Part shown: in pieces, positions 59,851 to 63,964 of the stretch
Layout of the letters: every line of letters begins with the position of its first letter
Position numbering within the stretch: position 1 is the stretch's first letter
Source: Candidatus Fusobacterium pullicola
GTDB lineage: Bacteria; Fusobacteriota; Fusobacteriia; Fusobacteriales; Fusobacteriaceae
Direction of reading: 5' to 3'
Length of the DNA stretch: 64,000 nt
NCBI GenBank assembly: GCA_018883725.1
Contig: JAHLFN010000068.1
Location: 1-64,000, forward strand
The notes under the pieces: model-generated
What the model was told of the DNA's origin: nothing
Seen by the model: only the letters and a program-made list of their open reading frames with translations
The model's database searches: none
Translations under genes and position numbers: made by a program

Positions 59851-59880
59851 TTGTACAATAAGAATAAACTAATGTATACT
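59851..59880 (+). promoter_or_regulatory. Promoter for the lysine riboswitch operon
   Basis: TTGTAC (59851-59856), an 18-base spacer, TATACT (59875-59880). The expected start of transcription, about 59887, is just before the aptamer. Confidence 0.6.
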
Positions 59881-59892
59881 AATAGTAAAAGC

Positions 59893-60059
59893 AAGATAGA
59901 GGAGCAAATGACAGGAGTAAAAATATATAGCTTGGCAGGCGTTATGATATTTTGAAAGGGGAATTTGCCGAAATGGAAGAGAGAGCTAAACTCTTTTGTT
60001 GGCAATGTGGATAATATTTACATTGTTGTCATTGAATTTTTTCAGTGGAGAGCTATCTG
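59893..60059 (+). promoter_or_regulatory. Lysine riboswitch (L-box) aptamer
   Basis: The conserved blocks of the lysine riboswitch appear in order: AGAGGAGC (59898-59905), AGTA (59916-59919), GAAAGGGGAA (59954-59963), GCCGAAAT (59967-59974), TTGTTGTCATT (around 60023-60032) and GTGGAGAGC (60045-60053). AGATAG (59894-59899) pairs with CTATCT (60053-60058) to close P1. Spacing and order are those of the L-box class, which senses free L-lysine and usually turns genes off. Confidence 0.9.
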
Positions 60060-60130
60060 TGAGAATAAGAGAGGGATTATTTTATCTTTTTTGTAATTTA
60101 TCACAGTTTAGTCAGCTGTGATTTTTTTAT
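60057..60130 (+). terminator. Riboswitch expression platform: terminator and competing antiterminator
   Basis: ATCACAG (60100-60106) pairs with CTGTGAT (60116-60122), with extra G-U and A-U pairs inside, followed by a T run (TTTTTTATTTT): a rho-independent terminator. CTGTGA at 60057-60062 overlaps the 3' strand of aptamer P1 and is also perfectly complementary to TCACAG (60101-60106). So without lysine an antiterminator can form; with lysine, P1 forms and the terminator stops transcription. Confidence 0.8.
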
Positions 60131-60160
60131 TTTGCTAAAAATTTGAGGAGGTATATATTA

Positions 60161-60757
60161 ATGATTAATGCAATTTGGTGTGGACTTATAGTTATAGGAA
60201 TTTTAGTAGGAATATTTACAGGTAATGTACAGGCTGTCACAGACTCAGCAATTAAATCAGCGGGAACAGCAGTAACTTTATCTATAGAGATGATAGGTGT
60301 TATGGTACTTTGGCTTGGGTTAATGAAAATAGCAGAGGAAGCTGGAATGGTAAAGGCTATTGGAAATTTAATGAAACCAATCTTAGTAAGATTATTTCCA
60401 GAAGTACCTGCTGATCATCCAGCAATGGGAAGTATGGTAGCCAATATGGCAGCAAACTTTTTTGGATTAGGAAATGCAGCAACTCCTTTAGGAATAAAGG
60501 CTATGCAAGAGTTACAATTATTAAATGATAATAAAGATGAAGCTTCAAATTCAATGGTAATGTTTTTAGCTATAAATACTTCATCAATAACTCTTATATC
60601 ATCAAGTACAATAGCTTATAGAGTAGCTGCAGGTTCAGCTAATGCAACAGAGATAATAGCTCCTACTATAGTAGCAACAATAGCGTCTACAGCAGTAGCT
60701 ATAATTTCGTGCAAATTTTTAGAAAAATTACCAAAGTATAGAAGAGAAAAAATATAA
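60161..60757 (+). CDS. spmA: SpmA-like membrane protein (nucleoside-recognition/Gate domain)
   Basis: A 198-residue integral membrane protein with about five hydrophobic segments. It has the SpmA pattern NLMKPILVRLFPEVPADHPAMGSMVANMAANFFGLGNAATPLGIKAMQEL and FLAINTSSITLISSSTIAYRVAAGSANATEI. SpmA and SpmB are needed for spore-core dehydration in Bacillus/Clostridium, but the Gate-domain family is wider and probably transports solutes. An in-frame TTG at 60143 lies in the ribosome site; GAGGAGG serves the ATG at 60161. It is directly behind the lysine riboswitch, so lysine should repress it. Confidence 0.9.
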   Translation: MINAIWCGLIVIGILVGIFTGNVQAVTDSAIKSAGTAVTLSIEMIGVMVLWLGLMKIAEEAGMVKAIGNLMKPILVRLFPEVPADHPAMGSMVANMAANFFGLGNAATPLGIKAMQELQLLNDNKDEASNSMVMFLAINTSSITLISSSTIAYRVAAGSANATEIIAPTIVATIASTAVAIISCKFLEKLPKYRREKI

Positions 60758-60802
60758 TATTGAAATAATTTTGAATATTTAGTAAAATTTAGGAGGAAGA
60801 AT

Positions 60803-61342
60803 ATGTTTGTAAGAATAATGGAGAGTATCTCACTTTATGCAATACCATTAATAATTTTAATAATAGTAGGATATGCTTATTTTGTAAAAAAAATAAAAGT
60901 ATATGAGGTATTTTGTGAAGGAGCAAAGGAAGGATTTAATACATCAATAAGAATTATACCATTTTTAGTAGCAATGTTAGTTGCAATAGGGATATTTAGA
61001 GCTTCTGGATGTATCGATATAATGATGAAGATATTAGATCCTGTATTTGGATTGATAGGAATGCCTGGAGAGGTATTACCAATGGCAATATTAAGACCAT
61101 TATCAGGTGGTGGAGCAACTGGGGTAATGAATGATTTAATGTTAACATATGGACCAGACTCTTTAATAGGAAGAATAGCTTCAACAATGATGGGATCTAC
61201 AGAAACTACTTTCTATGTTCTTGCTGTATATTTTGGAGCAGTAAGCATAAGAAAAACGAGGCATGCTGTTGCAGTTGGATTACTAGCCGACCTAGCTGGA
61301 TTACTAACTGCAGTATGGATTTGTAGAATTATGTTTGCATAA
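60803..61342 (+). CDS. spmB: SpmB-like membrane protein (nucleoside-recognition/Gate domain)
   Basis: A 179-residue membrane protein, partner of SpmA. It carries TSIRIIPFLVAMLVAIGIFRASGCIDIMMKILDPVFGLIGMPGEVLPMAILRPLSGGGATGVMNDLM and GSTETTFYVLAVYFGAVSIRKTRHA, family hallmarks. It is 45 bases after spmA with AGGAGGAA before the ATG, in the lysine-riboswitch operon. In B. subtilis the same pair follows dacB. Confidence 0.9.
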   Translation: MFVRIMESISLYAIPLIILIIVGYAYFVKKIKVYEVFCEGAKEGFNTSIRIIPFLVAMLVAIGIFRASGCIDIMMKILDPVFGLIGMPGEVLPMAILRPLSGGGATGVMNDLMLTYGPDSLIGRIASTMMGSTETTFYVLAVYFGAVSIRKTRHAVAVGLLADLAGLLTAVWICRIMFA

Positions 61343-61363
61343 AAATATAATTTGGAGTAGAAA

Positions 61364-63031
61364 ATGAAAAAAATTAAATTATTATTAGTAGCTATAATTT
61401 TATTAACTGGATGTACTAATACAAAAGTAGAAAATGAAAATCAGAATCTTGCTCAAAATCTTGAAGTTTCAGAGCAAACCCAAATAGATTCACCAAGTGA
61501 TATCTTAAAAAATCTTCAAAACACTAACGAGAGTCTTCAAGAAGCAAAGGAAGCTAGAATAGATATCAAAAAAGAGAGTTTAGAAAATAGTATTAAAAGT
61601 ATAGATGAAGTAGATTCAACTAAAAAAGAGACTATACTTAACGATATTAAAGAGAAAAAAAATGAAAAACAGATTTTTAAAAGTAAAAAAAATATAGTTA
61701 AGGAAAAAACTCAAAAAGCTATAGATAAATTTGTAAATTTAGAAACATTAAGATATAGTAATGTAGGAATTAGTATTGTAGATTTAAAAACTGGAGAAAC
61801 CATAGGAAGTTATCATAAAGAGGCAGCAATGAATCCGGCTTCAGTTTTTAAAGTTATAACATCAGCTACAGCTTTAGAAGTTTTAGGAGCTAATACTAGA
61901 TTGGAAACTAAACTTTTATATGATGGAAAAATAGATAATGAAGGTATATTAAAAGGGGATATATATATAATAGGTGGTGGAGATCCAACATTAGGATCTG
62001 ATGGAATAAAGGTTAAACAAAGTGCATTCATGGAAGAATGGTTAAGTAAAATAGAAGCTGCTCAGATTAAAAAAATAGATGGAGATATAATTGTAATAGA
62101 TAATCTATTTGGTTATGTAGGAGTAGAGGAGAAATGGCTATGGGAAGATTTTGGAACTAGCTATGGACAGGGAACATATGGAGTTAGTATATTTGATAAT
62201 CTCTATACTTTATATTTAAAATCAGATGATAAAAATGTAAAAATTGTTGGAACTAAGCCAGAAATAGAAGGATTAAAATTTGAAAATAGATTAAAGGTAT
62301 CTGAAAAGGGTAGAAAGAGTTTTTCAGTAAGAGGAGTAGCTTTTGAAAATAAGAGAATCTTAAACGGAGAAGTACCAGCAAATCAAGAGAAAATAGTTAC
62401 AAAAAGTGATATTCCAAATCCAGGTTTATTTTTAGGGCAATACTTTAAAAATAGTTTAAAAACTGTTGGAATTGCTGTAAATGGAGAGGTAAAAACAAGT
62501 AGAAATACAAATAAAAGACCTAAAAACCCAAATACTTTAGCTATTACAAAATCAGCTACAATAGAAGAGATGGTAAGAGTACTTCTAAAAAGAAGTGATA
62601 ATCACTATACAGAGCATCTATATCAACTTATAAAACTAAAAGATGTAGATATTGAAGAGTTTTGGAAAGCAAAAGGAGTTGATACAAAAGCCCTCGTGAT
62701 GAATGATGGAAGTGGACTTTCTCGTGGAGATTATGTATCAGCAGATATTTTAACAAATATATTAGTATATATGAATAAAAACTATTCTGGGTTTGATAAG
62801 CTTTTACCAAGAGGGGGTTATGAGGGAACTGTTTCAGATTTCTTAGAACCAAGTGTATTCTCTGGAGATATAAGAGTAAAAAGTGGAAGTATGAGTGGAA
62901 TTCAATCTTATACTGGATATGTAAAGAAAGATGGACGTGAGCTTGCATTTACAATAATTGTTAATCATTGGAATGGAAGTAGAAATAAATTAAAAGATAA
63001 TATGGAAACGTTAATTAATGATTTATTTTAG
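61364..63031 (+). CDS. dacB: Lipoprotein D-alanyl-D-alanine carboxypeptidase/endopeptidase (PBP4, S13 family)
   Basis: A 555-residue penicillin-binding protein. A lipoprotein signal (MKKIKLLLVAIILLTGC, lipid on Cys17) is followed by a Glu/Lys/Asn-rich helical linker (about 20-125) that is extra for the family. The S13 catalytic domain has SxxK at 160-163 (SVFK), SDN at 411-413 and KSGS (506-509). It trims D-Ala-D-Ala stems or cuts crosslinks in the periplasm. It is 21 bases after spmB and thus probably under lysine control. Confidence 0.92.
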   Translation: MKKIKLLLVAIILLTGCTNTKVENENQNLAQNLEVSEQTQIDSPSDILKNLQNTNESLQEAKEARIDIKKESLENSIKSIDEVDSTKKETILNDIKEKKNEKQIFKSKKNIVKEKTQKAIDKFVNLETLRYSNVGISIVDLKTGETIGSYHKEAAMNPASVFKVITSATALEVLGANTRLETKLLYDGKIDNEGILKGDIYIIGGGDPTLGSDGIKVKQSAFMEEWLSKIEAAQIKKIDGDIIVIDNLFGYVGVEEKWLWEDFGTSYGQGTYGVSIFDNLYTLYLKSDDKNVKIVGTKPEIEGLKFENRLKVSEKGRKSFSVRGVAFENKRILNGEVPANQEKIVTKSDIPNPGLFLGQYFKNSLKTVGIAVNGEVKTSRNTNKRPKNPNTLAITKSATIEEMVRVLLKRSDNHYTEHLYQLIKLKDVDIEEFWKAKGVDTKALVMNDGSGLSRGDYVSADILTNILVYMNKNYSGFDKLLPRGGYEGTVSDFLEPSVFSGDIRVKSGSMSGIQSYTGYVKKDGRELAFTIIVNHWNGSRNKLKDNMETLINDLF

Positions 63032-63040
63032 AGGGATAAA

Positions 63041-63964
63041 ATGTTAGGAAAAAAACTAAAAAAAGGTGATACAATAGGAATTATAGCACCAGCTAGCTGT
63101 ACAACTTATGAGAAAGTTTTAGAGGCAAAGAAAAACATAGAAGACATGGGATATCAGGTAATTTTGGGAGAGTGTACTAAAAAACAGTGGTATTCATATG
63201 CTGGAACAGACGAAGAAAGAGCAGAAGAGATAAATAGTTTTTTTGATGATAAAAGTATTGATGCTATAATTTGTATGCGTGGAGGATATGGATGTAATAG
63301 ATTAATAGAGCTTTTAGATTTTGAAGTTATAAAAAGAAATCCAAAAATATTTGTAGGTTATAGTGATATAACAACACTACATATAGCATTAAATGAAAAA
63401 GCTAATCTAATAACATTTCATGGACCAATGGCAGTAAGTAATTTTACTGGTAATTATAACAGAGATACATATGAAAATTTCATAGAGATACTTTCTAACT
63501 CAAGAGATAAACAAAGTATAAAAAATATTACAAAAGAGTTGGAAGTTTTAAATGAAGGAAGAGCAAAGGGAAAGCTTGTAGGTGGAAATTTAGCTACTCT
63601 TATAGCAACACTTGGAACTGAATATGATTTAGATTATAATGGAAAGATACTATTTTTAGAAGAGATTGGAGAAAAAACTTATAAAATAGATAGATTTCTA
63701 AATCAATTAAAAAAGCATGGTGTTTTTGAAAAAATAGAAGGTTTAGTTCTAGGAGATTTTAAAAACTGTATTCAAGATTCAGAAAAAGATATGACACTTT
63801 TAGAGGTTTTTCAGAATTATTTTAAGGAGTTAAAAAAGCCTGTAATATATAATTTTGAAAGTGGGCATTCAGAGCCAATGTTGACTCTTCCATTAGGGGC
63901 TATATGTGAAATAGATACTTATAATAAAGAGCTAAAAGTATTGGAGAGAGTAGTTAGTGAATAA
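63041..63964 (+). CDS. ldcA: L,D-carboxypeptidase (LdcA, S66 family)
   Basis: A 307-residue LD-carboxypeptidase that removes the terminal D-Ala from tetrapeptides. The nucleophile is Ser108 in VGYSDIT. The catalytic Glu is 207 or 208 (FLEEIGEKTYKIDRFL) and His276 lies in ESGHSEPMLTLPLG. Cytoplasmic, no signal peptide, so it acts in muropeptide recycling. AGAGGG precedes the ATG, 9 bases after dacB, so it is part of the same operon. Confidence 0.93.
   Translation: MLGKKLKKGDTIGIIAPASCTTYEKVLEAKKNIEDMGYQVILGECTKKQWYSYAGTDEERAEEINSFFDDKSIDAIICMRGGYGCNRLIELLDFEVIKRNPKIFVGYSDITTLHIALNEKANLITFHGPMAVSNFTGNYNRDTYENFIEILSNSRDKQSIKNITKELEVLNEGRAKGKLVGGNLATLIATLGTEYDLDYNGKILFLEEIGEKTYKIDRFLNQLKKHGVFEKIEGLVLGDFKNCIQDSEKDMTLLEVFQNYFKELKKPVIYNFESGHSEPMLTLPLGAICEIDTYNKELKVLERVVSE

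What the first reader, a model, noticed from the sequence alone, without database searches (positions are those of the whole stretch)
59851..63964. Lysine riboswitch in front of a spmA-spmB-dacB-ldcA operon in a Gram-negative, apparently non-sporulating bacterium
Seen: the L-box aptamer at 59893-60059 and four tightly spaced co-directional genes (gaps of 45, 21 and 9 bases) with no internal terminator. Known: lysine riboswitches normally repress lysine synthesis or uptake genes; SpmA/SpmB are studied as spore-maturation proteins, and B. subtilis has dacB-spmA-spmB as one operon. Inferred: here SpmAB would be a lysine-repressed membrane system, perhaps importing lysine, diaminopimelate or a cell-wall peptide. 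DacB and LdcA would release or recycle stem-peptide pieces. This joins amino-acid sensing to peptidoglycan turnover and gives a testable function to SpmAB outside spores.
Basis: partly seen in the sequence, partly recalled or inferred. Interest (0 to 1): 0.85.

Follow-up and report, generated by a model that had tools for sequence, protein, structure and literature searches.

The report
Lysine switch on cell-wall recycling genes
A lysine-sensing RNA sits in front of an operon that pairs a probable membrane transporter (SpmAB, known mainly from spores) with two cell-wall peptide-trimming enzymes, which suggests that these non-spore-forming bacteria turn on salvage of cell-wall peptides when lysine runs low.

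Summary
Rfam's lysine riboswitch matches 59889-60063 (113.9 bits; cut-off 30), followed by a terminator at 60100-60122 and spmA-spmB-dacB-ldcA with gaps of 45, 21 and 9 bases. The aptamer precedes spmA in 11 of 12 genomes of the genus, but in none of 11 spmAB loci of the two neighbouring genera and none of the Bacillota loci checked. The leader is built as a transcriptional OFF switch: in 9 of 11 leaders the 3' strand of P1 runs into an antiterminator (CUGUGA/UCACAG) that competes with the terminator.

Context supports a wall-peptide link. In relatives the same switch heads spmA-spmB-ldcA-thrE-thrE2-lysA-M20, with dapF close by. In Peptostreptococcaceae spmAB-ldcA follows alanine racemase, beside a D-aminopeptidase. 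This ldcA is the genome's only S66 peptidase. These SpmAB fall outside the Bacillus sporulation clade. A natural SpmA-SpmB fusion folds confidently and weakly resembles elevator transporters.

Best reading: low lysine turns on salvage of diaminopimelate-containing wall peptides. OFF control is well supported and the salvage operon likely; the substrate of SpmAB is open (DAP peptide, D-alanine or lysine). 'DacB' is family S13, not the S11 DacB of Bacillus. All evidence is computational.

The parts
59852..59880 (+). candidate promoter TGTACA-17-TATACT, just before the aptamer
   Evidence: 9 of 12 matches; the number of such sites is chance-level, chosen by position
59889..60063 (+). lysine riboswitch aptamer (RF00168)
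59894..59899 (+). P1 helix, 5' strand AGAUAG
   Evidence: CM alignment
60053..60058 (+). P1 helix, 3' strand CUAUCU
   Evidence: CM alignment
60057..60062 (+). antiterminator, 5' strand CUGUGA (shares 2 nt with P1)
   Evidence: conserved in 9 of 11 leaders
60101..60106 (+). antiterminator 3' strand UCACAG, also the terminator's 5' arm
60100..60129 (+). intrinsic terminator: hairpin 60100-60122 (9 bp), then a T run
   Evidence: kept in all 11 leaders
60161..60757 (+). spmA, 198 aa, Gate-domain membrane protein (ATG start chosen by homologues)
60803..61342 (+). spmB, 179 aa, Gate-domain membrane protein
61364..63031 (+). dacB, 555 aa, S13 DD-carboxypeptidase/endopeptidase (PBP4 type), likely lipoprotein (LLTGC at residue 13; SVFK 160, SDN 411, KSG 506)
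63041..63964 (+). ldcA, 307 aa, S66 LD-carboxypeptidase (GYSD 106, EEIGE 207, GHSEP 275); no signal peptide seen; only S66 in the genome

Best explanation
A transcriptional OFF lysine riboswitch controls a salvage operon for peptidoglycan stem peptides. When lysine is plentiful it binds the aptamer, P1 closes, the terminator forms and the operon is off. When lysine is scarce, CUGUGA (end of P1 and just after) pairs with UCACAG (terminator 5' arm), and RNA polymerase reads into spmA-spmB-dacB-ldcA. DacB, probably a periplasmic lipoprotein, trims or un-crosslinks stem peptides; SpmA and SpmB together form an elevator-type secondary transporter that moves a wall-derived compound (favoured: a diaminopimelate-containing peptide or free DAP); cytoplasmic LdcA removes the terminal D-Ala from DAP so that DAP can be freed and decarboxylated by LysA to lysine. 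Shown by computation: the riboswitch, its competing structures, the operon, its conservation, the catalytic motifs, and the linkage to lysA and dapF in relatives. Inferred: the response to lysine in cells, the enzyme substrates, the transport activity and its direction.
For: Aptamer 113.9 bits; present before spmA in 11 of 12 genomes of the genus. Terminator kept in all 11 leaders, antiterminator in 9, with CUGUGA changing to CUGUGG (still pairing, G-U) in four and a different inner hairpin; in those 9 the ON and OFF folds lie within about -2.6 to +3.6 kcal/mol of each other; both hairpins of the window fold far better than shuffles (z -4.2, -4.4). In G025, G026 and G028 one riboswitch heads spmA-spmB-ldcA-thrE-thrE2-lysA-M20 (in G027 lysA was read as two ORFs), with dapF close by in all four; LysA scores 447 bits against a cut-off of 298. 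The window's genome has lysA-dapF, lysC-asd-dapA-dapB-dapH and an amino-acid ABC transporter under its other three lysine riboswitches, so spmAB-dacB-ldcA is the fourth member of a lysine-supply regulon. Only one S66 gene in the genome. spmA-spmB-ldcA is also found in Cetobacterium and Bacillota, beside murI, alr, an M55 D-aminopeptidase, M20 and a glucosaminidase-domain gene. Fused SpmAB modelled at pLDDT 89.9, pTM 0.86; top structural matches are elevator-type transporters: VcINDY, NaS1, TRAP SiaQM, CNT, YdaH.
Against: No measured lysine response, enzyme activity or transport. Structural matches are weak globally (TM about 0.4; only two with E below 0.001). LdcA does not reach the cut-off of the E. 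coli-type equivalog model (180.5 against 378), and S66 includes enzymes with other roles. E. coli AmpG and MpaA queries found nothing in the genome, so how DAP would be freed from the tripeptide is unknown, though these negatives are weak. lysA is in the operon in only four genomes, and dacB is absent from those. Two genomes (G022, G023) have low-scoring aptamers (60.8, 78.4 bits) without the antiterminator; one (G029) has none. Within G025-G028 a second spmAB copy has no riboswitch.
Confidence: 0.5

Rival explanations
1. SpmAB carries D-alanine (or a D-Ala dipeptide), the shared product of its partner enzymes; lysine control acts through LdcA and DacB, or as a proxy for wall precursor supply.
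For: DacB (S13 here, S11 in Bacillus), LdcA, the M55 D-aminopeptidase and alanine racemase all make or use D-Ala and sit beside spmAB in different lineages. It would explain spmAB in Bacillus, where dacB removes D-Ala and no lysine link is known.
Against: Does not explain why a lysine sensor was recruited or why lysA and dapF are in the same cluster in four relatives; alr was not seen next to spmAB in the Fusobacteriota loci listed.
Confidence: 0.25
2. SpmAB is itself a lysine importer (or imports lysine-containing peptides) and the enzymes are passengers.
For: Lysine riboswitches usually control lysine synthesis or uptake (PMC5584792). The spmA aptamers resemble those in front of transporter genes (DcuC/YfcC type, NhaC type; mostly 70-82% identity) more than those of lysA and lysC (57-67%). 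Structural matches are to secondary transporters.
Against: spmA-spmB-ldcA stays together without the riboswitch in Cetobacterium and Bacillota, next to wall-peptide enzymes; the genome already has an amino-acid ABC transporter under a lysine riboswitch. Trees of short aptamers are weak evidence.
Confidence: 0.15
3. The switch is ON: lysine activates the operon and SpmAB exports excess lysine or wall amino acids, alongside the ThrE-type exporter.
For: A survey lists lysine catabolic genes under lysine riboswitches, including kal in F. nucleatum, and describes such genes as activated at high lysine (PMC5584792); ThrE exporter genes lie in the operon in G025-G028.
Against: The antiterminator uses the 3' strand of P1, which is OFF logic; lysA, a biosynthetic gene, is in the same operon in relatives.
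Confidence: 0.06
4. Regulatory accident: a mobile riboswitch copy landed before an unrelated operon and is now decaying.
For: Absent in neighbouring genera; degenerate in G022 and G023; absent in G029.
Against: Kept at about 110-122 bits with a working-looking platform in 9 genomes, although orthologous aptamers differ by up to about a quarter of their positions; combined with lysA downstream in four.
Confidence: 0.08

Closest known systems
Lysine riboswitch (L box, RF00168), e.g. in front of lysC, lysA, lysW, lysXY
   Same: full-length aptamer match; P1/antiterminator/terminator logic
   Different: controls SpmAB plus DacB and LdcA, a target not found in the distribution survey or the paper searches made (PMC5584792)
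dacB-spmA-spmB sporulation operon of Bacillus
   Same: homologous SpmA and SpmB (about 50-55% identity) next to a DD-carboxypeptidase
   Different: non-spore-former; S13 instead of S11 DacB; ldcA added; different SpmAB clade; lysine riboswitch in front
E. coli yjiH-yjiG-iadA
   Same: pair of adjacent genes related to SpmA/SpmB followed by a peptidase gene
   Different: distant (YjiG 34% over 86 residues, YjiH only marginal); isoaspartyl dipeptidase, not LdcA
SpoVV (YlbJ), Gate-family dipicolinate transporter of B. subtilis (PMC5629000)
   Same: Gate domain; transports a compound from the DAP/lysine pathway
   Different: single protein, sporulation-specific; homology beyond the Gate domain not tested here
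E. coli murein tripeptide recycling (AmpG, MppA-Opp, LdcA, MpaA, Mpl)
   Same: LdcA step on DAP-type tetrapeptides (function from general knowledge)
   Different: AmpG and MpaA not detected with E. coli queries; lysine control by riboswitch

Membership tests
Lysine riboswitch RF00168 | covariance-model score over the gathering cut-off, full length | tested here: met
   113.9 bits against 30, positions 1-182
Lysine riboswitch RF00168 | expression platform in which P1 and an antiterminator exclude each other | tested here: met
   2 nt shared by P1 and antiterminator, 6 nt by antiterminator and terminator in the window; the genome's ABC-transporter riboswitch shows the same logic; for lysA and lysC the automatic scan was not decisive
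Lysine riboswitch RF00168 | binds lysine and changes expression | not testable with these tools
   needs in vitro transcription or a reporter
SpmA/SpmB | two adjacent Gate-domain proteins aligning end to end with Bacillus SpmA/SpmB | tested here: met
SpmAB sporulation operon | S11 DacB next to SpmAB in a spore-former | tested here: not met
   S13 here, S11 in B. velezensis; no Spo0A; separate clade
LdcA (S66 LD-carboxypeptidase) | both S66 domains with Ser-Glu-His motifs | tested here: met
   143.4 and 133.6 bits; motifs
LdcA (S66 LD-carboxypeptidase) | cleaves D-Ala from DAP in tetrapeptides | not testable with these tools
   below the E. coli-type equivalog cut-off
PBP4 (S13 DD-carboxypeptidase/endopeptidase) | TIGR00666 over cut-off, SxxK/SxN/KTG motifs | tested here: met
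   178 against 107.8 bits; SVFK, SDN, KSG
Elevator-type secondary transporter | fold similarity to solved elevator transporters | tested here: inconclusive
   probability 1.00 but TM about 0.4, E 6e-4 at best, on a fused homologue

The most novel reading that the evidence does not exclude
SpmAB is an elevator-type transporter of DAP-containing wall peptides (or DAP), and lysine-starved cells of this Fusobacteriota genus switch on, through a riboswitch, the salvage of their own or other bacteria's peptidoglycan to make lysine. This would give SpmAB, including the spore SpmAB, a first biochemical function.
Probability: 0.3. Interest if true: 0.85.

Novelty: new variant of a known kind. Interest (0 to 1): 0.62.

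Why it matters
A 2012 survey of sporulation genes found no data on activity and no structure for SpmA or SpmB (PMC3533761), and no solved chain credibly matches them by sequence. A riboswitch names the metabolite that matters to the cell. Here lysine control, lysA in the same operon in relatives and the partner peptidases narrow the candidates to a few testable compounds (DAP, DAP peptides, D-Ala, lysine). If right, amino-acid sensing is wired directly to wall recycling in non-spore-forming bacteria of the phylum Fusobacteriota.

Tried and rejected
Riboswitch in front of spmAB outside the genus: none in 13 named loci scanned or in the other genera of the phylum, although most of those organisms have lysine riboswitches elsewhere. 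DapF presence as a marker to explain which genera have spmAB: DapF is nearly universal in the phylum, so uninformative. Viral contigs with SpmB: nothing. E. coli AmpG and MpaA queries: nothing, no positive control. Sequence search of solved structures with the SpmAB profile: no credible hit. Structure search in viral models: nothing. Descent of the spmA aptamer from the lysA aptamer: not supported, it is closer to transporter aptamers. A scan for P1/terminator complementarity in the genome's other three riboswitches was clear only for the ABC one.
Full report
What was checked. The lysine riboswitch is real: RF00168 at 59889-60063, 113.9 bits, full length. The four genes and the gaps of 45, 21 and 9 bases are as described, and the only terminator-like site of the region lies between aptamer and spmA. 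SpmA and SpmB each carry one Gate domain; DacB is S13/PBP4 with intact active-site motifs and a lipobox; LdcA is S66 with its three motifs. The genome has no Spo0A match, and LdcA is its only S66 protein.

Organism and regulon. The window lies in a 1.94 Mb assembly of the phylum Fusobacteriota (one genome of a sister genus, G014, is the named uncultured Cetobacterium). It holds four lysine riboswitches: before lysA-dapF and two sodium:dicarboxylate-family symporters, before lysC-asd-dapA-dapB-dapH-aminotransferase, before an amino-acid ABC transporter, and before spmA-spmB-dacB-ldcA. The first three are lysine synthesis and uptake, so the fourth joins a lysine-supply regulon. Gene names in the first two are from sequence recognition; DapF was confirmed by TIGR00652.

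Distribution. Among 98 genomes of the phylum, SpmA occurs in 23, in three genera only. Comparing coordinates, and scanning the fetched loci, the riboswitch precedes spmA in 11 of 12 genomes of the window's genus (G000, G019-G028) and in none of the 11 spmA-bearing genomes of the two sister genera, whose operon is spmA-spmB-ldcA without dacB in the loci read. Six Bacillota loci (Romboutsia, Clostridium sp. CCUG 7971, Faecalimicrobium, three MAGs) have closely related SpmAB, five of them followed by ldcA, but no riboswitch within about 6 kb, although their genomes have lysine riboswitches elsewhere. So lysine control was added to an older spmA-spmB-ldcA module.

How the switch works. All 11 leaders keep the terminator TATCACAG...CTGTGAT-Tn. 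In nine, the aptamer ends in CUGUGA or CUGUGG, which repeats the terminator's 3' arm and can pair with its 5' arm, closing a longer hairpin of -8 to -16.6 kcal/mol. It shares one to three nucleotides with P1, so closing P1 on lysine weakens it. The two global folds are nearly equal in energy (difference -2.6 to +3.6 kcal/mol), as expected of a switch, and both hairpins in the window are much stronger than in shuffles. This is OFF logic: lysine gives termination. Two genomes (G022, G023) have weak aptamers and no antiterminator but keep the terminator; there the switch may be decaying.

What the operon is for. In G025, G026 and G028 the same riboswitch heads spmA-spmB-ldcA-thrE-thrE2-lysA-M20, with a DcuC-family carrier or dapF after that; in G027 the order is the same but lysA was read as two ORFs. 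dapF lies close to the cluster in all four, and glutamate racemase lies just upstream of the riboswitch. LysA is a clear diaminopimelate decarboxylase (447 bits, cut-off 298). In Peptostreptococcaceae, spmA-spmB-ldcA follows alanine racemase, with an M55 D-aminopeptidase divergent from it and, in L033, a glucosaminidase-domain gene behind (L034 has a similar-looking gene that was not scanned); in two Bacillota MAGs an M20 peptidase follows. In E. coli a distant Gate pair, yjiH-yjiG, precedes the isoaspartyl dipeptidase iadA. So this branch of SpmAB keeps company with enzymes that take peptidoglycan stem peptides apart. A tree of joined SpmA and SpmB puts the Fusobacteriota and these Bacillota together (support 0.94), apart from the Bacillus sporulation clade. 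The dacB beside spmAB in Bacillus is S11, so pairing with a DD-carboxypeptidase involves two different peptidase families.

SpmAB as transporter. A natural SpmA-SpmB fusion (L051, 52% and 58% identical to the window's SpmA and SpmB) was modelled at pLDDT 89.9 and pTM 0.86. Its best structural matches are elevator-type secondary transporters: VcINDY, NaS1, the TRAP transporter SiaQM, CNT and the AbgT-family YdaH. Global TM-scores are only about 0.4, so this is support for a transporter, not proof. SpoVV, another Gate protein, carries dipicolinate, a product of the same pathway (PMC5629000).

Mechanism favoured. Low lysine, no P1, antiterminator, operon on; DacB trims or opens stem peptides; SpmAB moves a wall-derived compound; LdcA removes D-Ala next to DAP; LysA turns freed DAP into lysine. 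The switch direction I hold at about 0.85, wall-peptide salvage at about 0.65, and DAP or a DAP peptide as the SpmAB substrate at about 0.3, with D-Ala and lysine as the main rivals. The step that frees DAP from the tripeptide is unidentified.

Novelty. The riboswitch class, SpmAB, DacB and LdcA are all known. A lysine riboswitch on SpmAB and peptidoglycan peptidases was not found in the searches made, which cover an open-access library only. I call it a new variant of a known kind.

Noticed in passing
window 59775-59652, minus strand: Candidate small RNA upstream of the riboswitch: consensus promoter TTGACA-16-TATAAT with TG, a nearly invariant 5' part of about 40 nt (one A/G variant and one 10-base insertion among 7 genomes), then a terminator hairpin with a few compensatory changes. 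DNA conserved in 11 of 12 genomes of the genus; no Rfam family over its cut-off.
   Followed up: partly
L013-L020 (genomes G025-G028): A second spmAB copy without a riboswitch lies after an oligopeptide-type ABC ATPase gene. The two copies are 98-99% identical over the spmAB stretch only in three genomes, more than the same loci between genomes (87-95%): likely gene conversion.
   Followed up: partly
L128, L131, L132 (genomes G025-G027): M20 amidohydrolase as the first gene behind another lysine riboswitch, about 53% identical to the M20 of the spmAB operon.
   Followed up: no
L115, L117, L120, L123-L127, L129, L130, L133, L134: Na+/H+ antiporter-family (NhaC type) and DcuC-family (YfcC type) carriers as first genes behind lysine riboswitches in this genus; probable lysine transporters.
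   Followed up: no
L007:9449-9510, minus strand: RAGATH-18 RNA (RF03064, 70.7 bits) in the window's own genome.
   Followed up: no
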